From assembly GCF_000003815.2 (NCBI RefSeq), contig NC_049984.1:15814360-15878359 (forward strand): 64,000 nt of DNA, in the 5' to 3' direction. Positions within the stretch are counted from its first letter, which is position 1. The number at the start of each line of letters is the position of its first letter. Of the stretch, positions 7,430 to 49,115 are shown in pieces. The stretch comes from Branchiostoma floridae. Lineage: Eukaryota; Chordata; Leptocardii; Amphioxiformes; Branchiostomatidae. The notes beneath the pieces were generated by a model. That model was not told the DNA's origin and ran no database searches. It saw only the letters and a list, made by a program, of their open reading frames with translations. Position numbers and translations under genes: made by a program.

Positions 7430-8275
7430 TCATTAGGTTGTAAATCGAGGGAACAGGAGCCAAAAATGTTCAAATTTTGTCAAAAAATGGCCATAAAATC
7501 GCAAAATTAAGCATTTTGTTGTACCGTATGGGAAAACTTTTATTGAATTTATGTGCACATAATTGAAGGGCACTTTTATACCAAATTTCAGATCATATGG
7601 TTGTAAAACGAGGCTACAGGAGCCAAAAATGTCCTTTTTTGGTCAAAAAATGGCCAAAAATCGCAAAATTAAGTATTTTGTTGTACCGTATGGGAAGCCT
7701 TTTATTGAATTTATGTGCAAATAATTGAAGGGCACTTTTATACTAAATTTCAGATCATATGGTTGTAAAACGAGGCTACAGGAGCCAAAAATGTCCTTTT
7801 TTGGTCAAAAAATGGCCAAAAATCGCAAAATTAAGTATTTTGTTGTACCGTATGGGAAACCTTTTATTGAATTTATGTGCAAATAATTGAAGGGCACTTT
7901 TATACCAAATTTCAGATCATTTGGTTGTAAAACGAGGCTACAGGAGCCAAAAATGTCCTTTTTTGGTTAAAAAAAATGGCCAAAAATCGCAAAATTAAGC
8001 ATTTTGTTGTATTGTATGGGAAAACTGTTATTGAATTTATGTGCACATAATTGAAGGGCACTTTTATACCAAATTTCAGATCATTTGGTTGTAAAACGAG
8101 GCTACAGGAGCCAAAAATGTTTTTTTGGTCAAAAAATGGCCCAAAATCGCAAAATTAAGCATTTTGTTGTACCGTATGCCAAAACTGTTATTGAATCTAG
8201 GTGAGCATATGATCAAGGCACCTCTGTACCAAATTCCATGTCATTCGGCTGTAATACCAGGGCACAGGAGCCCGA
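7430..8275 (+). repeat. central direct repeats, ~162-base unit, five copies
   Basis: The block AGGAGCCAAAAATG recurs near 7455, 7619, 7781, 7942 and 8106, giving spacings of 161-165 bases. Each unit also contains ATCGCAAAATTAAG, TTTTGTTGTACCGTATGGG and TTCAGATCATNTGGTTGTAA. The inner copies are almost identical, the outer ones diverged. A further degraded unit start follows at ~8267 and a partial one precedes the array near 7215. Confidence 0.85.
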
Positions 8276-18539: not shown

Positions 18540-20420
18540 TTCGAACAGGGGAGAACCTCTCACGGTTAGCTTATATGCGCTATTTTACGTTATATGAAAT
18601 GTTGCGTATACCATGGTCAATATTGACCGAAGGATGCCATAAATATAATTTATTTCGAACCGTCATTTACGCAAAGATGGGAAGACCTCCCCCGTTAATA
18701 TATTTGCCAAGACGTATATGAAATGTTGCGTATTTCATTTGAACATACGACATGTTTATTCTTTGAATCCGCGCAGTTTAAGCGAACTAGGGGAGACCTC
18801 CCCCGCTCAGCGTATATGTTGCCAAAACGTATATGAAATGTTGCGTATTTGTTTTGAATATACGACATGTTTAATCTTTGAATCCGCGCAGTTTAAGCGA
18901 ACTTCGGGAGACCACCCCCGTTTAGCTTAAATGTTGTCAAGACGTATATGAAATGTTGTGTATTTCTAAAACATACAACAAGTTTAATCTTTGAATCCGC
19001 GCAGTTTAAGCGAACTAGGGGAGACCTCCCCCGTTTAGCTTAAATGTTGTCAAGACGTATATGAAATGTTGCGTATTTCTGTAAAACATACAACAAGTTT
19101 AATCTTTGAATCCGCGCAGTTTAAGCGAACTAGGGGAGACCTCCCCCGTTTAGCGTATATGCTGCCAAAATGTATATGAAATGTTGCGTATTTCTGTTGA
19201 ACATACGACATGTTTAATCTTTGAATCCGCGCAGTTTAAGCGAACTAGGGGAGACCTCCCCCGTTTAGCTTATATCACGGTTGCCAAAACGTATATGAAA
19301 TGTTGCGTATTTCTGTTGAACATACGACATGTTTAATCTTTGAATCCGTGCAGTTTAAGCGAACTAGGGGAGACCTCCCCCGTTTAGCTTATAAGCTGCC
19401 AAAACGTATATGAAATGTTGCGTATTTCTGTAAAACATACAACAAGTTTAATCTTTGAATCCTCGCAGTTTAAGCGAACTTCGGGAGACCACCCCCGTTT
19501 AGCTTAAATGTTGTCAAGACGTATATGAAATGTTGTCTATTTCTAAAACATACAACAAGTTTAATCTTTGAATCCGCGCAGTTTAAGCGAACTAGGGGAG
19601 ACCTCCCCCGTTTAGCTTAAATGTTGTCAAGACGTATATGAAATGTTGCGTATTTCTGTAAAACATACAACAAGTTTAATCTTTGAATCCGCGCAGTTTA
19701 AGCGAACTAGGGGAGACCTCCCCCGTTTACCTTATATGTTGCCAAGACGTATATGAAATGTTGCGTATTTCTGTTGAACATACGACATGTTTAATCTTTG
19801 AATCCGTGCAGTTTAAGCGAACTAGGGGAGACCTCCCCCGTTTAGCTTATAAGCTGCCAAAACGTATATGAAATGTTGCGTATTTCTGTAAAACATACAA
19901 CAAGTTTAATCTTTGAATCCTCGCAGTTTAAGCGAACTTCGGGAGACCACCCCCGTTTAGCTTAAATGTTGTCAAGACGTATATGAAATGTTGTCTATTT
20001 CTAAAACATACAACAAGTTTAATCTTTGAATCCGCGCAGTTTAAGCGAACTAGGGGAGACCTCCCCCGTTTAGCTTATATCACGGTTGCCAAAACGTATA
20101 TGAAATGTTGCGTATTTCTGTTGAACATACGACATGTTTAATCTTTGAATCGCGCAGTTTAAGCGAACTAGGGGAGACCTCCCCCGTTTACCTTATATGT
20201 TGCCAAGACGTATATGAAATGTTGCGTATTTCTGTTGAACATACGACATGTTTAATCTTTGAATCTGCGTAGCTTAAGCAAACTTGGGGGCACTACCCCC
20301 GTTTTATCTATTAGCTAATACCGTCTCAAAGCTTTTATGAAACGTTGCCTTTTTCTGCTGAACATACGGCATGTTTGAAGCGCAGTTTCTGCGAACAGGA
20401 GGAGACCCTTTCCTTTTTAT
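18540..20420 (+). repeat. ~115-base satellite, about 15 units
   Basis: The block AATCTTTGAATCCGCGCAGT recurs at ~18758 and then 18873, 18985, 19101, 19215, 19334, 19450, 19563, 19678, 19793, 19909, 20021, 20140 and 20254, with spacings of 112-119 bases. Each unit also has CTAGGGGAGACCTCCCCCG, a 6-base stem with a 2-base loop (GGGGAG-AC-CTCCCC), and ACGTATATGAAATGTTGCGT. Variant types alternate, and the stretch from 19334 recurs nearly exactly from 19793, a ~459-base higher-order unit. The edges are diverged. Short frames inside are not genes. Confidence 0.92.
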
Positions 20421-20935: not shown

Positions 20936-21718
20936 GTGCGTCTGTATTTGTGTTTGTGAACAGTATAACTCAAGGAAGGGTGGCTGGATCTTTGGCATGC
21001 AGAACGTGTGGGAACAGTCGAAATGCAGCAGGGCGTACAATACATGCGAGTAACAAGAAATGTATGAAGAGAGCCCATGATATCTTGGTACTAAGGGACT
21101 GTAAATGGACACATAGCGAGTTTGTAAAAAAAATAAAGGGTATACATTTGTATTTGAAATGTACTCTTTCTTTACTAAGCATACCGAGAAGTCACAGTGA
21201 GATAAAAAAAATAGTTGGGTCCCACTATGCTGGTCGGGCTGAGACGCAGTGCATATTCACGGGCGCGACCTTGCTCCTCGGATCGACACGGGGACTTTTA
21301 CCTGCGTTGTTTCCAACCTGGATCGGTGTGTCCCTCTTGAAACAGAACAGCCTATTAGTCCTGGGCTCCTGGGTAACCATATCGGTGCCGAAGTTAGCGA
21401 GTCGCCCGATCGTCATAGCACAGCGTGCCGGCCTCAAGCGCTCCACCACCCAGCCTCCAGGAAGTACATGTAGTAGTGGAGCGCCACAAACGACGCGCTG
21501 CTGACGGCACATGGCTTTTCAGTTCAGAATGGGAAGGAGTTGTGAAACGCCACTTGGCAGAAAGGTGGTCCTGAATGTGTACTAGAGCATAGGCTATTTC
21601 ATGTTCCGTGGCGCAACGGTTATTGTTACTTTCCGAACGATTTTCGTGTCGACTACGTGAAATTCGGGTTGACGGCGGCCATTGGGGGTAAAGCAGAAGG
21701 GCGGGGGAAAAGCAGAAT
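20936..21718. other. spacer between inverted arms, no gene seen
   Basis: Sequence between the gap and the right arm. Overlapping frames at 21225-21512 on both strands have no domain. The right arm continues inward with further GGGGG-periodic sequence (21685-21718), which the left arm would be expected to match inside the gap. Confidence 0.4.
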
Positions 21719-22680: not shown

Positions 22681-23530
22681 TTATTCTCCTAAAATGGCAC
22701 TTATCCACACGTTATAATCAACTTAATGCACACGTATATGAGATGTACAGAGGGAACTTTAAACATGTCTTAAGGGTGTTTTAGTACGTATTTATGACAA
22801 CTTTAAGCTGCTAAAAAGAAAAATATAGACACATTAAATCCTCTTAATTCACACGTATATGAGACGTAAATAGGCTTTAGATCAAATAGACGTGGAGTTT
22901 AAACATGTCTTAAGGGCGTTTTAATAGATATTTATGGCGAATTTAAGCTACTGAAAAGGCACCTAAACACGTTATAATCCTCTTAATGCACACGTATATG
23001 AGACGTAAATAGGCTTTAGATCAAATAAACGTGAAGTTTAAACATGTCTTAAGGGCGTTTTAATAAGTATTTATGGCAAATTTAAGCTGCTGAAAAGGCA
23101 CCTAAACACACGTTATAATATCCACTTAATGCACACGTATATGAGACGTAAATAGGCTTTAGATCAAGTATACGTGAAGTTTAAACATGTCTTAAGGGCA
23201 TTTTAATAGATATCTATGGCAACTTTAAACTGCTGAAAAGGCACCTAAACACACGTTATAATCCTCTTAATGCACACGTATATGAGACGTAAAGAGGCTT
23301 TAGATAAAATAAACGTGAAGTTTAAACATGTCTTAAGGGCGTTTTAATAAGTATTTATGGCAACTTTAAGCTGCTGAAAAGGCACTAAAACACACGTTAT
23401 AATCCACTTAATGCAATTGTATATGAGACGTAAAGAGGCTTTAGGTCAAATAAACGTGAACTTTAAACAAGTTTTAAGGGGGTTTTAAAAATCATTTACG
23501 ACATCTTTAAGCTGCTGAAAGACAACAGGA
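22680..23530 (+). repeat. ~140-base satellite, six units
   Basis: The block GCACACGTATATGAGACGT (with variants) recurs near 22729, 22849, 22989, 23132, 23273 and 23413. Each unit carries TTTAAACATGTCTTAAGGG, CTTTAAGCTGCTGAAAAGGC and CACACGTTATAATCC. Units 3-5 are the most alike. The ACGTATATGA core is also present in every unit of the satellite at 18540-20420. Confidence 0.9.
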
Positions 23531-32598: not shown

Positions 32599-32667
32599 TT
32601 GCCTCCCCGGAATCGAACCGGGTGCATTGGTTTACAATGCGCAAATTTCCCACTGCGCTAGAGCGAC
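32599..32667 (-). tRNA. tRNA-like sequence or tRNA pseudogene
   Basis: On the minus strand the A box TAGCGCAGTGGG and the B box GGTTCGATTCC are both excellent, and the T stem (CCCGG/CCGGG) is perfect. A GCATT/AATGC stem could hold the anticodon loop GTAAACC. The acceptor stem pairs only about 4 of 7 positions and the D stem is weak. It is therefore more likely a pseudogene, a SINE head or an odd tRNA than a working gene. The anticodon is not assigned. It lies 24 bases outside the left end of the foldback element. Confidence 0.4.
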
Positions 32668-32690
32668 CACTGCAAGTGGCAAAATCAATA

Positions 32691-34810
32691 GGGGCTGCAC
32701 GAGCAACCTCCATGGAGGAGCTCTACAGAGCTGACCTCCATGGAGGTTGCTCGTTCAGTCCTCCAGCTCCACCGTGCGAGCTCTATGCGCTATGAATACA
32801 AACACTTGGTTCTCGTCACCTTCATGGAATTTTTAGTACGACATGGAGGAGGTTCTCTCGTAGAGGACAAACAACCGGACTGAACTAGCAGCTGTACGCA
32901 AAACATGGTACACGGGCTATGAATGTTTTTTGATTCACGTCACCCAAAACCAATTGATCTTAGCGCTCTATACAGTAACAAAGGGCTGTTTGAGTAGCGC
33001 TCTACGGGTTATGACTGTAAACACTTGGTTCACGAAACCGAAACAAATCGGTCTTAGGGCTCCATTCAGAGATAAAGTAAACAACAAACACACGGAGCCG
33101 AAAGCTGTTTGAGCAGCTCCACGGGCTATATAAATGTAAACACTTGGTTCACGTCACCATCAACAAATCGGTGTTTAGGGCTCCATACAGAGATATTGTA
33201 AGCAACAAACACACGGAGCCGATAGCTATTTGAGCAGCTCCACGGGCTATATGAATGTAAACACTTGGTTCACGTCACCATCAACAAATCGGTGTTTAGG
33301 GCTCCATACAGGGATACTGTAAACAACAAACACACTGAGCCGATAACTGATCGAGCAACTCCACGGGCTATATGAATGTAAACACTTGGTTCACGTCACC
33401 ATTAACAAATCGGTGTTTAGGGCTCCATACAGAGATACTGTAAACAACAAACACACGGAGCCGAAAGCTGTTTGAGCAGCTCCACGGGCTATATGAATGT
33501 AAACACTTGGTTCACGTCACCATCAACAAGTCGGTGTTTAGGGCTCTTTACAGGGATATTGTAAACAACAAACACACAGAGCCGATAGCTGTTTGAGCAG
33601 CTCCACGGGCTATGAATGTAAACATTTGGTTCACGTCACCCAAAACAAATCGGTCAGAGGTCTGTCCAAGCAGCGCTCCACGGGCTTTGAATGTAAACAT
33701 TTGGTTCACGTCACCCAAAACAAATCGGTCAGAGGTCTGTCCAAGCAGCCCTCTACGGGCTTTGAATGTAATTGTAAACATTTGTTTCACGTCACCCAAA
33801 ACAAATCGGTCAGAGGTCTGTCCAAGCAGCCCTCTACGGGCTTTGAATGTAAACATTTGGTTCACGTCACCCAAAACAAATCGGTCAGAGGTCTGTCCAA
33901 GCAGCGCTCCACGGGCTTTGAATGTAAACATTTGGTTCACGTCACCCAAAACAAATCGGTCAGAGGTCTGTCCAAGCAGCCCTCTACGGGCTTTGAATGT
34001 AATTGTAAACATTTGTTTCACGTCACCCAAAACAAATCGGTCAGAGGTCTGTCCAAGCAGCGCTCCACGGGCTTTGAATGTAAACATTTGTTTCACGTCA
34101 CCCAAAACAAATCGGTCAGAGGTCTGTCCAAGCAGCCCTCTACGTGCTATGAATGTAAACATTTGGTTCACGTCACCCAAAACAAATCGGTCAGAGGTCT
34201 GTCCTAGCAGCGCTCCACGGGATTTACAGAGATACTGTTAACAACAAACACACGGAGCCGAAAGCTGTTTGAGCAGCTCCACGGGCTATATGAATGTAAA
34301 CACTTGGTTCACGTCACCATCAACAAATCGGTGTTTAGGGCTCCATACAGAGATATTGTAAACAACAAACACACGGAGCCGAAAGCTGTTTGAGCAGCTC
34401 CACGGGCTATATGAATGTAAACACTTGGTTCACGTCACCCAAAACAAATCGGTGTTTAGGGCTCCATACAGAGATATTGTAAACAACAAACACACAGAGC
34501 CGATAGCTGTTTGAGCAGCTCCACGGGCTATATGAATGTAAACACTTGGTTCACGTCACCATCAACAAATCGGTGTTTAGGGCTCCATACAGAGATATTG
34601 TAAACAACAAACACACGGAGCCGAAAGCTGTTTGAGCAGCTCCACGGGCTATATAAATGTAAACACTTGGTTTACGTGACTATCAACAAATCGGTGTTTA
34701 GGGCTCCATACAGAGATACTGTAAACAACAAACACACGGAGCCGATAGCTGATCGAGCAGCTCCATGGGCTATATGAATGTAAACACTTGGTTCACGTCA
34801 CCCAAAACAA
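32691..34810 (+). repeat. foldback element, left arm
   Basis: From outside in: a terminal hairpin (32701-32752, GAGCAACCTCCATGGAGG with its complement), ~300 bases of single-copy sequence, about four 121-base units (33122-33602), eight 75/81-base units (33603-34215), then about five more 121-base units (34216-34810). The frames of ~205 codons open in two plus frames and one minus frame arise because 75 and 81 are multiples of three; they are not genes. Confidence 0.85.
33603..34215 (+). repeat. 75-base tandem units, eight copies
   Basis: CACGTCACCCAAAACAAATC followed by GGTCAGAGGTCTGTCCAAGC recurs at ~33638, 33713, 33794, 33869, 33944, 34025, 34100 and 34175. Two units are 81 bases because of an extra 6 bases (AATTGT). 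Two variants (CAGCGCTCCACGGG and CAGCCCTCTACGGG) alternate in blocks. The consensus half CACGGGCTNTGAATGTAAACA is shared with the 121-base unit, so the two unit types are related. Confidence 0.92.
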
Positions 34811-37800
34811 ATCCACCCATCCTTGTCGGATACGGGTTATGAGGTAAAACTTCCTGGGAACGAGGTTAGCAACAGGTCTAAATATTTCTTTTATGCAACC
34901 ACATGTTGTTTTTGCAAAGTGGGCAACAGAACGCCCCCCCCCCCCTCCCCCGAAACACACGCGCGCGCGCGCAATGCACACAAACACTAGTAATAATTAT
35001 TAATTTTTTGTATGGTTTGATCAAGGAGCTTAAAAAATCCTTGGTTTGATACAAAGGTTGAAAGAACAAAAAACAACCCGCTTATTGAATGAAGCAAGCA
35101 GTGCATTGTTTATGTCGGCTCTCGCAAGGAAAGCTGAAAGTTCGCACCTCCGTGCTAATCCGAAATCGTCTCAAAGCGCGCCCTTGCCACACCAGAACAC
35201 TGACGCCAGAAGCAGCTGGCTTTCTGGCCTATGACGTAGTCCCCAAACAGAGGTCCGTGGGGAAAATCGTGACCATTTCCTTTGATTCATATTTTTTTTT
35301 GAAGGTCGAAAAAAATTATGAAAGGAAAAGGTCGCGATTTTCCCACCAACCTCTGCTTGACAGAACAACGAGCCTCTCGAAACCTCTGTATGAAGTAATT
35401 TGTTGCAAAAAACCTTTCCATACATGTACAAGTGTTGATTCTGAGGATCATGAACATCAAAGATAGGTTGGTCAGTAACTGGCAGTAACATAACATTTTT
35501 CTTTAGAACCATTTGAGCTGTAAATCTAAACTTGGCCTACCGTGTGCAATGTTTATATGGATAGAGATCAGTGGGTGCTGTAGGTATCTAATGTATTTTT
35601 CATCAGTTGTACATGTACAGTGCTTTATGCCTTTGTTAACAGTTACTCTAGAAAAATTGATAAAGCAAAGGTTATGTCGTAACATAAAAAAAATACAGAT
35701 AATGATATATGTATAAACCCCCTGCGGGTACTAGTGTATCCTCAGTTGCAGCCTTCGAACAGGTCTGGTTATTATTGGGGTGGGGGGAAGGGGGTTACGA
35801 TTTTCAACGTTGGCTAGGTTGTCTTGTGCCAGTTTGCTGTGGAAGACGAAACTCCCTTCCTCGGCAAACTCCCTTCCTAAGCGAACACCCTTCCTCGGCA
35901 AACCCCCTTCCTCGAACGTCCTTGCTCGAACTTATGTAATGTCTAAGAGAACTTATGTAGTGTTTAAAATCGCGAACCAAGATCCCCCCCCCCCCCCCCC
36001 ATAAAATACAGTCCCGTTCGAAGACAGTGCACCGAAGGCGACTGCGGGTACATTCTATTAAAGTGGAGCGGGATACGTGCTTGAATGGGAGAAACCTCAT
36101 ATTAGCGTGCAAAGTTCTCCAATAGAATAATGATATAGATTATATAATGGTACTTGATAATTGGTATGTAGTAATGATGGTTTATAACAGTACCCACCAA
36201 TGTTGCAAACCTCGTACTAAGAAAGTTTTCTCACCTCCTTGCTTGTACCCACCATTAGTGTTGGATATTAAAACCTAAGGCTTGTACTTTGACTTTATCA
36301 CTTTAACGGACAATATGACCAAGCCAGCATGTACAGGTTTGTAGAGAACATCTTGACCTTCACATGTGCCGGTAGGACCAATGAAGAAAGTGACATTGGA
36401 GTAAAGGATTACACTTTTCTGCACCAGCCTCTGCTTGGAAAGTTATAGGCCTCTCTAGTCAGGAAGCTGTTTTCGGCGTGGTAAAGCCGATGTCCGTCGG
36501 ATTAGCACGGGGTGCGAACTTCCAGCTTTCCTTGCGAGAGCGAAAAACATTTCACCGATTGCTTCATTCAATGAAAGGGTTGTTTTGATTTGCCATGAAA
36601 GAGAAAAATCATTGTTACAGTCGTGTTTGTGAGTGTGGTGGGAAGGGGGTGGTTTGAGAAATATGATTTCTTGAAGGTGAAGCATACATGATGTACCATG
36701 TCTGTCGTTATGCATACAGGGGTGTATTCAGGACATATTTGCGGAATTCATACGAGCTCTAAAGGTTCGTATGGATTCCGTAAAACTCATATGAATTAAG
36801 TCAGATTTGTGTGTTTCTTTGATCGCCAATCAGATCAGGCCTAAGGTTAATAGACTTAATAAGTACCAAACTCAGACGAAGGAGTGTAGTGATCACAATA
36901 GGTGTCCTTTGCCTGAATTGTGAAGAGCTTACAAACTTGTGTTCAATATTAAAACCTTTGAGATTAATATTGATTCAATACTAGTAGTCAAAGATAGTTT
37001 GCGAAAACAGTACTTTGACATTATAGTACTCTTCCCAAGGACCTTATATCATTTTTGCTCTACCAGACTACATGACCCACTCTCCAATCTAGCATGTACA
37101 GGTTAGTAGAGTCTGCAACATCGTGAACATCTCATATGCCGGTAGGACCAGCGGGGAAATTTTACTCGACCAACATCTGCTTGGAAAGTTATACGACGAT
37201 AAGCCAGCTGCTTCCGGCGTCAGTGTCCTGGTGTGGTAAGGGCGATTTCGGATTAGCACGGAGGTGCGAACTTCGGGCTTTCCTGGCGAGAGCCAACAAA
37301 CCGCTTCATTCAATTAATGGGTTGTTTTTACCAATGTCTGATAGAACGTCCTTGTTTTTACGGAATGCATAAGAGCTCTACTAGTCGCAAATTTAGTGTG
37401 CATTTCGCAAAGCTCATTTGAATTCAAATCCGTGTGTTTTTTGGTAATGAATCGTATAAAATAACTATAAATTCGTACATTTTACGAAAGCCGTTATATT
37501 CTTATAAAAGCAGGCACCCCTTCTTTAGAGATCTCCTCATAACAGGTCAAAATATATCTTTATGAAGCCATATGTGTTGTTTTTTTCGTATTGAACCAAA
37601 AATGTTAATCTCCAAGCAGATTTCTCCGGTGGCATTAAAAAAGTAACATAAGCTGGGGAAGGAATTAGCCAGCAAAGGAGGATAATTTGCCAAAGATGTC
37701 TACAAACTTGTTACAGGGCTGAGCCTGAAGTAAACCAAAACAGAATTAGCATAAAGGTGCGAAGTTTCTGCATTCTTTACAATGGCAAACAAGTATCAGT

Positions 37801-37935
37801 ATTCTCTCAGCAGAGGTTGGGTCACCACGTGAAGGGAGCGAACCGATAAATTCCGACTACTAGTACTTTTCCCAACTCACTATTCTGTGACCAAAAATCC
37901 GCTTGAAGAAACAAATATTCACTTTCTTGGGTAAT
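34811..37935. other. core of the foldback element, no transposase seen
   Basis: The core contains a module with CTGCTTGGAAAGTTATA, GATTAGCACGG and GGTGCGAACTT present twice in plus orientation (about 36320-36600 and 37085-37340) and once, partly, in minus orientation (about 35050-35250). Poly-C runs (34934-34945, 35985-36000) and an alternating CG tract (34960-34973) occur. Several frames of 60-125 codons have no transposase, integrase or helicase motif. Confidence 0.5.
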
Positions 37936-40055
37936 TCACGTGAACCAGATGTTTACATATATAGCCCGTAGAGCTGCTCAAACAGCCCTCCGTTTACCGT
38001 ATAGAGCCCTAAGACCGATTTGTTTGGGTGACTTGAATCAAATTTTTACATTCAAAGCCCGTGGAGCGCTGCTTGGACAGACCTCTGACCGATTTGTTTT
38101 GGGTGACGTGAACCAAATGTTTACATTCAAAGCCCGTAGAGGGCTGCTTGGACAGACCTCTGACCGATTTGTTTTGGGTGACGTGAACCAAATGTTTACA
38201 TTCAAAGCCCGTAGAGGGCTGCTTGGACAGACCTCTGACCGATTTGTTTTGGGTGACGTGAACCAAATGTTTACATTCATAGCCCGTGGAGCTGCTCAAA
38301 CAGCTATCGGCTCTGTGTGTTTGTTGTTTACAATATCCCTGAAAAGAGCCCTAAACGCCGATTTGTTGATGGTGACGTGAACCAAGTGTTTACATTCATA
38401 TAGCCCGTGGAGTTGCTCGATCAGTTATCGGCTCAGTGTGTTTGTTGTTTACAGTATCCCTGTATAGAGCTCGAGCCCTAAACACCGATTAGTTGATGGT
38501 GACGTGAACCAAGTGTTAACATTCATATAGCCCGTGGAGCTGCTCAAACAGCTTTCGGCTCCGTGTGTTTGTTGTTTACAGTATCCCTGTGTAGAGCCCT
38601 AAACACCGATTTGTTGATGGTGACGTGAACCAAGTGTTTACATTCATATAGCCCGTGGAGCTGCTCATACAGCTTTCGGCTCCGTGTGTTTGTTGTTTAC
38701 AATATCTCTGTATGGAGCCCTAAACACCGATTTGTTGATGGTGACGTGAACCAAGTGTTTATATTCATATAGCCCGTGGAGTTGCTCGATCAATTATCGG
38801 CTCAGTGTGTTTGTTGTTTACAGTATCCCTGTATAGAGCCCTAAACACCGATTTGTTGATGGTGACGTGAACCAAGTGTTTACATTCATATAGCCCGTGG
38901 AGTTGCTCGATCAGTTATCGGCTCCGTGTGTTTGTTGTTTACAGTATCTCTGTATGGAACCCTAAACACCGATTTGTTGATGGTGACGTGAACCAAGTGT
39001 TTACATTCATATAGCCCGTGGAGCTGCTCAAACAGCTTTCGGCTCCGTGTGTTTGTTGTTTACAATATCTCTGTATGGAGCCCTAAACACCGATTTGTTG
39101 ATGGTGACGTGAACCAAGTGTTTACATTCATATAGCCCGTGGAGTTGCTCGATCAGTTATCGGCTCCGTGTGTTTGTTGTTTACAGTATCTCTGTATGGA
39201 ACCCTAAACACCGATTTGTTGATGGTGACGTGAACCAAGTGTTTATAATCATATAGCCCGTGGAGCTGCTCGATCAGCTATCGGCTCCGTGTGTTTGTTG
39301 TTTACAGTATCTCTGTATGGAACCCTAAACACCGATTTGTTGATGGTGACGTGAACCAAGTGTTTACATTCATATAGCCCGTGGAGTTGTTCGATCAGTT
39401 ATCGGCTCAGTGTGTTTGTTGTTTACAGTATCCCTGTATAGAGCTCTAAACACCGATTTGTTGATGGTGACGTGAACCAAATTTTTACATTCATATAGCC
39501 CGTGGAGTTGCTCGATCAGTTATCGGCTCAGTGTGTTTGTTATTTACAGTATCCCTGTATAGAGCCCTAAACACCGATTTGTTGATGGTGACGTGAACCA
39601 AGTGTTTACATTTATATAGCCCGTGGAGCTGCTCAAACAGCTATCGGCTCCGTGTGTTTGTTGTTTACAGTATCTCTGAATGGAGCCCTAAGACCGATTT
39701 GTTTTGGGTTTTGTGAACCAAGTGTTTACAGTCATAACCCGTAGAGCGCTACTCAAACAGCCCTTTGTTACTGTATAGAGCGCTAAGATCAATTGGTTTT
39801 GGGTGACGTGAATCAAAAAACATTCATAGCCCGTGTACCATGTTTTGCGTACAGCTGCTAGTTCAGTCCGGTTGTTTGTCCTCTACGAGAGAACCTCCTC
39901 CATGTCGTACTAAAAATTCCATGAAGGTGACGAGAACCAAGTGTTTGTATTCATAGCGCATAGAGCTCGAACGGTGGAGCTGGAGGGCTGAACGAGCAAC
40001 CTCCTTGGAGGTCAGCTCTGTAGAGCTCCTCCATGGAGGTTGCTCGTGCAGCCCC
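37936..40055 (-). repeat. foldback element, right arm
   Basis: Inverse of the left arm. From outside in: the terminal hairpin (39994-40045), single-copy sequence to ~39700, about eleven 121-base units (38300-39700), three to four 75-base units (38010-38300) and a degraded inner edge. The unit numbers differ from the left arm (about nine 121-base units in two blocks and eight 75-base units there), so the arms are not simple copies. The 146-codon plus frame at 37940-38380 is repeat-driven. Confidence 0.85.
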
Positions 40056-40493
40056 TTCTCGGCAAAATGCAAAAAAATTAGGCGACATCTCGTGGCTTGG
40101 TGTGAGGGTGTCGTGGAAATATTCAAATTAGATGCGTACTATATTGTCAATACTATATTGTTACTGTCACCAGAATGTTTGGTACACTATTAAACCGCGA
40201 GGTGAGGTGAGTGTTACACAGTAGGTGGTATGGAGAAATGAATGAATGCGAACTAAGAGATGTCTTTGTAAGTATTCGTGTGTCTTCGCCATAGCAAGCA
40301 CCTCAAATATTTCATCATGGCTTGACAATATATAATACGTGCATGTACATAGTGAGAAGGGAGTGTCGTAGGCGGCGCATGCAGAAGACAGAAATGTCTG
40401 CGGTGGTTTGGAGCTCGAAGCAGCCACCGCGAAAATGGCGAAGATAAAACCACCGCGAAAGTTTCTGCATTAACAGTATATTTTGTTACAGAC

Positions 40494-48649: not shown

Positions 48650-49115
48650 CACATTATGAACTGTATATGTATCTGTGTTATAAGTGTTAAGTGTACGCCT
48701 TAATACATCAATATTTCCCAAGCTTGGTTCACCCGGAAAAGTCAATGACCGCTTAAGAGAAGATATAGCATCGTTATGTTGAAATATTAATAGTGTGAAG
48801 AATACTGCTTTATGAACTATATGCACAGTGTAATAAGTGTTAAGGAAAAGCCTCAATCCATAAATACTTCTTAAGCTTAGTTCACCCGGAAAGGTCAATG
48901 ACCGCTCAAAAGAAAAGATAGCATCTATATGTCAAAAGATTGAAGGTGTGAAGAATATTTCATTATGAACTATATCCACAATGTGATAAGTATTAAACAT
49001 ATGACTCAATCTATAGAATAATACTTCTCAAGCTTGGTTCACCAAGAAAAGTCGATGACTGATTAGAATAAATTTAAAGATAGTATCGACATTTTAAAAG
49101 ATTGAAAGTGCGAGG
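48650..49115 (+). repeat. ~155-base tandem repeat, three copies
   Basis: GAACTATATNCACAATGTNATAAGT, then CTTAGTTCACCCGGAAAGGT and CAATGACCGCTTAA variants, recur near 48657, 48812 and 48966. The third copy is the most diverged. Confidence 0.8.

What the first reader, a model, noticed from the sequence alone, without database searches (positions are those of the whole stretch)
32691..40055. 7.4-kb foldback element with 2.1-kb tandem-repeat arms
Two arms are inverted copies with sharp ends, single-copy tips and inner tandem arrays, enclosing a non-coding core. Foldback transposons of this build are well known in Drosophila. A structured element with two related unit sizes (121 and 75 bases) in a chordate-like genome would be worth describing. 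Seen: the inverted structure. Inferred: mobility.
Basis: partly seen in the sequence, partly recalled or inferred. Interest (0 to 1): 0.75.

Follow-up and report, generated by a model that had tools for sequence, protein, structure and literature searches.

The report
Amphioxus-type foldback transposon family
The inverted, tandem-repeat-armed structure is a real jumping element: dozens of copies sit elsewhere in the same genome, most of them between short duplicated target sites, and it carries no recognisable gene, so another element's enzyme presumably moves it.

Summary
The element is window 32686-40060 (7375 bp): two ~2.1-kb inverted arms (tips 98.6% identical) of 121- and 75-bp units around a non-coding core. 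Pairing end sequences across the 513-Mb genome (unnamed; amphioxus is my inference) gave 49 genuine inward pairs: 43 of 1.7-9.3 kb, 6 of 54-119 bp. Of 48 assessable, 39 have perfect target duplications (36 of 8 bp, 3 of 9 bp), 3 imperfect ones and 6 none; the window's is GGCAAAAT. The two ends carry different 4-bp caps outside the inverted repeat, CAAT type and GAGA type (48 of 49 pairs). Each tip is itself a hairpin, and similar 80-82-bp hairpins are inserted alone elsewhere. One copy splits a zinc-finger repeat whose frame rejoins without it. No transposase was seen in the copies scanned. One 48-bp motif underlies both unit sizes (20 and 19 copies per arm); I read it as a transposase-binding site. 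The anatomy best matches Tm1, a Mutator-related foldback family of nematodes, but the decisive transposase search did not complete, so the superfamily is unproven.

The parts
32678..32685 (+). left target-site duplication GGCAAAAT
   Evidence: 8/8 match to 40061-40068; chance of an 8-base match in 12-20 nt flanks 0.0005-0.003; same layout in most other copies
32686..32689 (+). CAAT cap, outside the inverted repeat
   Evidence: one CAAT-type and one GAGA-type end in 48 of 49 genuine pairs
32690..33043 (+). left tip (354 nt); outer 70 nt (32692-32761) a hairpin palindrome; three degenerate arm motifs, the third running past its inner border
33044..33600 (+). outer array of 121-bp units, left arm
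33600..34225 (+). array of 75/81-bp units, left arm (8 units)
34225..34813 (+). inner array of 121-bp units, left arm
34814..37936 (.). non-coding core; same core at 96-98% over its full length in 6 of 20 other loci fetched
37937..38022 (-). inner degenerate, tip-like unit of the right arm
38013..38292 (-). array of 75-bp units, right arm
38292..39702 (-). array of 121-bp units, right arm (about 12)
39703..40056 (-). right tip, inverted copy of 32690-33043 (98.6%)
40057..40060 (-). GAGA cap (TCTC on + strand), outside the inverted repeat
40061..40068 (+). right target-site duplication GGCAAAAT

Best explanation
A non-autonomous, recently mobile, cut-and-paste DNA transposon of the foldback type (the confidence given is for this). 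SHOWN: a dispersed family with asymmetric end caps (CAAT type / GAGA type), hairpin tips, motif arrays of variable length, a shared non-coding core, mostly 8-bp (sometimes 9-bp) target duplications, and short forms of 54-119 bp (five hairpins only, one with a piece of arm), four of the six with perfect duplications. INFERRED: a transposase made elsewhere in the genome recognises the tips and the repeated 48-bp motif (many sites per arm raise affinity, as proposed for Galileo), pairs one CAAT end with one GAGA end, excises the element and inserts it with an 8-9-bp stagger. Arms lengthen and shorten by unequal exchange between units and exchange sequence with each other; recombination between the inverted arms can flip the core. 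The superfamily I think most likely is Mutator-like (Phantom/Tm1-like), about 60%.
For: Copies. Target duplications: 39 of 48 assessable pairs perfect (36 of 8 bp, 3 of 9 bp), 3 more with 6-7 of 8. Asymmetric caps: 48 of 50 inward pairs, 48 of 49 without the false C16 pair. Zinc-finger frame rejoined without the element. Shared core and deletion forms; mean divergence of the core's 3' third 1.6% among 12 copies. Stand-alone hairpins: L055 69 of 72 identical to the window tip, L052, L081 and L054 less (61-65 of 72-75). One motif behind both unit sizes, 20 + 19 copies, 0 in window 1-31860 and 0 in the core. Core orientation relative to the CAAT end: of 18 copies, 10 like the window, 5 opposite, 3 unknown because the core is an N gap. 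No transposase frame seen in the window core or, by eye, in L045, L049, L051 and L057-L060; the longest frames there are retrotransposon pieces by eye. Superfamily: Tm1 (PMC3169594; passages, discussion part 1) has asymmetric terminal motifs outside tandem-repeat inverted repeats, 8-10-bp duplications, MITE-like forms and one copy with the same cap at both ends and no duplication, like C8:21092513 here.
Against: No transposase was found, and the Mutator-domain search of the genome did not complete. Most duplications are 8 bp, whereas Tm1 has mostly 9. A published survey could not find Mutator transposases in B. floridae (PMC6446971, passage). Six of 48 pairs have no duplication at all. No allelic empty site was seen. 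The zinc-finger run of L047 has a frame break further along in the flank, so the split gene may already be decayed or misread there. The caps were found with patterns that contain them, so ends with quite different caps would be missed. Binding to the motif is inferred only.
Confidence: 0.93

Rival explanations
1. Same foldback element, but driven by a P-superfamily transposase, as Galileo is.
For: Galileo has long, internally repetitive inverted repeats with extra THAP-domain binding sites inside the tandem repeats (PMC3688188, abstract and two sections). P elements make 8-bp duplications (recalled).
Against: PF21788 (TNP-like_GBD; that it marks P-type transposases is recalled) gave 0 matches in the genome, though it rang in 0 of 14 control genomes too, so this is weak. 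Three perfect 9-bp duplications. Asymmetric caps are reported for Mutator-like elements.
Confidence: 0.15
2. Same element driven by a hAT transposase.
For: Most duplications are 8 bp.
Against: The hAT target consensus nTnnnnAn (recalled) is not met: T at position 2 in 3 of 19, A at position 7 in 7 of 19; 9-bp duplications occur.
Confidence: 0.06
3. Not a mobile element: a local inverted duplication of a minisatellite, or an assembly artefact.
For: The window holds several unrelated minisatellites of 108-162-bp units.
Against: 122 and 83 end matches (overlapping sets) against 1 and 0 controls; perfect target duplications in 39 of 48 pairs; fixed ends.
Confidence: 0.01
4. The large elements arose when two hairpin MITEs came to flank other DNA and moved together; the arms grew later. 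(This concerns origin and is compatible with the best explanation.)
For: Each tip is nearly a complete stand-alone hairpin (69 of 72 with L055), and such hairpins occur alone with both caps and a duplication.
Against: The inner side of each tip lacks a cap (by eye), and the 119-bp form L082 keeps a piece of arm, so at least one small form looks like a deletion product of a large one. Direction of descent is not resolved.
Confidence: 0.35

Closest known systems
Tm1, Mutator/Foldback family of root-knot nematodes (PMC3169594; passages and discussion part 1 seen)
   Same: Composite inverted repeats made of tandem repeats in variable number; short asymmetric terminal motifs outside the inverted repeat; 8-10-bp duplications; MITE-like forms; one copy with the same motif at both ends and no duplication.
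   Different: Tm1 units are about 14 bp (here 75 and 121); caps 7 bp (here 4); duplications mostly 9 bp (here mostly 8); one Tm1 copy encodes a Phantom-type transposase, none found here; a terminal hairpin was not mentioned in the text seen.
Galileo (P superfamily, Drosophila; PMC3688188 abstract and two sections, PMC3573991 passages)
   Same: Long, internally repetitive inverted repeats of variable length; [quoted passage not shown] many non-autonomous copies.
   Different: Galileo has P-type transposase remnants; no PF21788 match in this genome (weak negative).
Tetris (Drosophila virilis; PMC4079207, passages)
   Same: Flanking domain, tandem repeats and variable non-coding middle; 8-10-bp duplications; non-autonomous; shares its ends with a MITE (DAIBAM).
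   Different: Unit about 220 bp; no asymmetric caps or tip hairpins in the passages seen.
Drosophila FB and sea-urchin TU elements (recalled; no TU paper listed)
   Same: Long tandem-repeat inverted arms; 8-9-bp duplications (recalled).
   Different: Sequence not compared.

Membership tests
Foldback-like DNA transposons | long inverted arms containing tandem repeats in variable number | tested here: met
Foldback-like DNA transposons | dispersed copies with target-site duplications | tested here: met
   39 of 48 assessable pairs perfect
Foldback-like DNA transposons | snap-back of single strands in vitro | not testable with these tools
   tips fold at z about -11 in silico
Mutator-like, Phantom/Tm1 type | 8-11-bp target duplication | tested here: met
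   36 of 8 bp and 3 of 9 bp among 48; range from PMC6446971 (passage)
Mutator-like, Phantom/Tm1 type | asymmetric short ends outside the inverted repeat (sub-TIR), as in Tm1 | tested here: met
   one CAAT-type and one GAGA-type end in 48 of 49 genuine pairs
Mutator-like, Phantom/Tm1 type | MULE transposase, often with FLYWCH finger, in an autonomous copy | tested here: inconclusive
   no transposase frame seen in the copies and middles scanned (Pfam run only on window frames); PF10551 search of the genome did not complete (16 tries)
hAT superfamily | 8-bp duplication with consensus nTnnnnAn (recalled) | tested here: not met
   T2 in 3 of 19, A7 in 7 of 19; three 9-bp duplications
P superfamily (Galileo) | P-type transposase (THAP, GTP-binding domain) | tested here: inconclusive
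   PF21788: 0 matches, but 0 of 14 controls too

The most novel reading that the evidence does not exclude
A recently active Mutator/Phantom-type foldback system lives in a cephalochordate, where a published survey could not find a Mutator transposase. Its unit of mobility is an 80-bp hairpin with two different caps, and pairs of such hairpins carry large non-coding cargo; one pair of elements 47 kb apart on C8 shares a single outer 8-mer and may have moved the whole stretch.
Probability: 0.3. Interest if true: 0.65.

Novelty: new member of a known kind. Interest (0 to 1): 0.5.

Why it matters
Foldback elements are best known from flies (recalled). A library search for 'Branchiostoma' with 'foldback' listed one paper, on a cattle tick, seen as listing only; a search for three of 'amphioxus', 'foldback', 'terminal inverted repeats', 'tandem repeats' listed 15 of 25 papers, none with both of the first two words. 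Repbase could not be searched, so an unpublished or catalogue entry may exist. The family gives 49 pairs of defined ends with mostly intact duplications, so it can test which superfamily drives foldback elements in chordates, why long tandem-repeat arms are kept, and whether paired elements rearrange chromosomes as Galileo does in Drosophila. It also bears on whether Mutator-like elements are active in amphioxus, which a survey left open (PMC6446971, passage).

Tried and rejected
Rejected: coding core; the weak Pfam hits to the translated 75-bp array score below the curated cut-offs and I take them as repeat noise. Rejected: equal arm length as a constraint. Rejected: different cores in L034, L039 and L040; these are assembly gaps. 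Not found: a transposase in three of the longest pairs, of which I saw only the middle 3.5 kb: C12:2221121 and C15:14331621 (with a 1.4-kb gap) hold the known core, and C234:82922 holds arm and core pieces and a reverse-transcriptase frame (named by eye). Led nowhere: tRNA search; PF21788 search; the amphioxus MITE paper asked for by a recalled DOI is not held. Not answered: PF10551 in the genome, and empty-site searches with joined flanks. Not done: scanning every fetched copy for open frames (L031-L033, L035-L038, L041-L044, L046-L048 and L050 were compared with the window's core by blastn only).

Pairing table: typed from the listings, neighbouring + and - ends within 20 kb. Caps with a changed or unread base (CAAA, CAGT, GAAA, NAGA and the like) were put in the nearer class. 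The listing was cut before all 122 places. Its rows that read GAGA/GAAA were left to the list. From one search's 83 rows I dropped 9: two already in the CAAT list and seven with 2 mismatches. Two of the dropped rows would form further short inward pairs that I did not check (C13:16462868/16462938; C19:4638191/4638260, the latter GAGA/GAGA). With them the count would be 49 of 52 mixed pairs. 49 listed ends stayed unpaired.

Full report
What is in the window. Searches confirm two inverted arms, 32690-34813 and 37937-40056, around a core at 34814-37936. Both arms run inward from a 354-nt tip (98.6% identical between arms) through 121-bp units to 75-bp units. The left arm then returns to 121-bp units before the core; the right arm ends in a degenerate, tip-like unit. 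The 121-bp units are about as similar between arms (92.0%) as within them (92.9% and 92.0%), and the junction units of the two arms are each other's best matches, so the arms share ancestry and have not drifted apart. One 48-bp motif underlies both unit sizes: 20 copies in the left arm and 19 in the right, including degenerate ones in the tips, with none in window 1-31860 on either strand (scanned in slices) and none in the core. The outer 70 nt of each tip is a palindrome that folds far better than shuffles.

Is it mobile? The genome search placed the window in a 513-Mb, 431-contig genome and scored 40 of 201 candidate places. In 18 long copies read at base level (the window's included), 34 of 36 tips start AGGGGCTGC and the other two have one change (L037, L040). 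Outside them come four constant bases, CAAT at one end and GAGA at the other (L031 reads CAAA), and then the target. In 17 of these 18 the next 8 bases are a perfect direct repeat. In 24 further pairs, 15 have a perfect 8-mer, 3 a perfect 9-mer (read from the printed flanks), one 7 of 8, and five none. Of six small copies (54-119 bp) four have perfect 8-mers and two have 6-7 of 8. One pair, C9:312162, could not be judged because of an N stretch. In all, 39 of 48 are perfect, 3 imperfect and 6 have none.

Ends. Listing both end types gave 50 inward pairs within 20 kb; 48 have one CAAT-type and one GAGA-type end. One exception (C16) is a truncated arm and no pair (L053, by eye). The other, C8:21092513, has GAGA at both ends and no duplication. 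Sizes fall in two groups, 54-119 bp and 1.7-9.3 kb. Rows dropped before this count, and the limits of the listings, are told in Tried and rejected.

An interrupted gene. Copy L047 lies in a run of C2H2 zinc fingers. Leaving out the element and one duplication gives an open frame of 125 residues with four fingers across the junction; with the element in place the frame runs into the tip and stops. This supports both the boundaries and the event. Against a fully intact gene: beyond this frame the neighbouring fingers are in another frame, so the run is broken there as well, by decay or by a sequence error.

Family structure. The window's core is present at 96-98% over its full length in 6 of 20 other loci fetched (L031, L032, L033, L035, L043, L046); others have internal deletions or insertions, and L049, L050 and L051 are older relatives with core stretches at about 70-86%. 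Mean divergence of the core's 3' third is 1.6% among 12 copies, below the 3.2-4.2% heterozygosity given for sequenced amphioxus species in the abstract of PMC12500494 (search listing), so many copies may still be polymorphic. That comparison assumes this is an amphioxus. Relative to the CAAT end the core points one way in 10 copies, the other way in 5, and is hidden by gaps in 3. A tree groups three of the five (support 0.80) and, rooted at its midpoint, places the other two outside, so one reversal is enough.

How it works. Shown: insertion with 8-9-bp duplication, constant ends, no transposase frame in what was scanned. Inferred: mobilisation in trans. For Galileo, footprinting and gel shifts found transposase-binding sites both near the end and inside the tandem repeats (PMC3688188, abstract, introduction and section 2.6). 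I propose the same role for the 48-bp motif. The pairing of one CAAT with one GAGA end suggests that the transposase complex tells the two ends apart.

Which superfamily? Tm1 of root-knot nematodes shares the unusual asymmetric caps, tandem-repeat inverted repeats, 8-10-bp duplications and MITE-like forms, and one Tm1 copy encodes a Phantom-type Mutator transposase (PMC3169594; passages, discussion part 1). A survey of Mutator elements reports an earlier claim for Branchiostoma floridae but could not detect the transposase (PMC6446971, passage). I therefore favour Mutator-like at about 60%, but no transposase was found and the search for it did not complete. hAT is disfavoured by its target consensus. 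P is possible.

Identity of the genome. No tool names it. Its size (513 Mb), the contig lengths seen (19-35 Mb for low-numbered contigs, under 1 Mb for C171 and above) and my recollection of the Florida lancelet assembly point to Branchiostoma floridae; treat this as inference.

Noticed in passing
G000 C8:21092513-21098294 and C8:21135812-21139321 (L113, L114): Neither element has its own target duplication, but the left flank of the first (GTGTCAAG) equals the right flank of the second, 46.8 kb apart. Either the two moved together with the DNA between them, or scaffolding or recombination joined halves: the first has unlike tips (93% and 82% to the window's) and two GAGA caps, the second a 100-base gap.
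   Followed up: partly
window 34814-37936: The core contains its own old repeats: 35069-35222 inverted to 37201-37329 and (in part) to 36497-36586, a direct pair 36319-36586 / 37084-37328, and a palindrome 35244-35359.
   Followed up: partly
window 40494: The element ends about 426 bp upstream of the first Met of an epoxide hydrolase frame (PF06441, E 5.5e-35), so it may lie in that gene's promoter region.
   Followed up: no
window 32599-32670: A tRNA-like sequence (minus strand, by eye) lies just left of the insertion; ARAGORN does not call it.
   Followed up: partly
window 21209-21494: Full-length match to metazoan signal recognition particle RNA, just above the Rfam threshold (72.7 vs 70 bits).
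   Followed up: no
window 7430-8272, 18679-20304, 22754-23520, 48652-49059: Several unrelated minisatellites with 115-162-bp units.
   Followed up: no
L032 (C13:3262443-3270834), C3:7037655-7044549, C8:1868042-1875425, C231:538547-540254: Complete pairs without target duplications, as could follow recombination between copies; no partner flanks noticed by eye among those read.
   Followed up: partly
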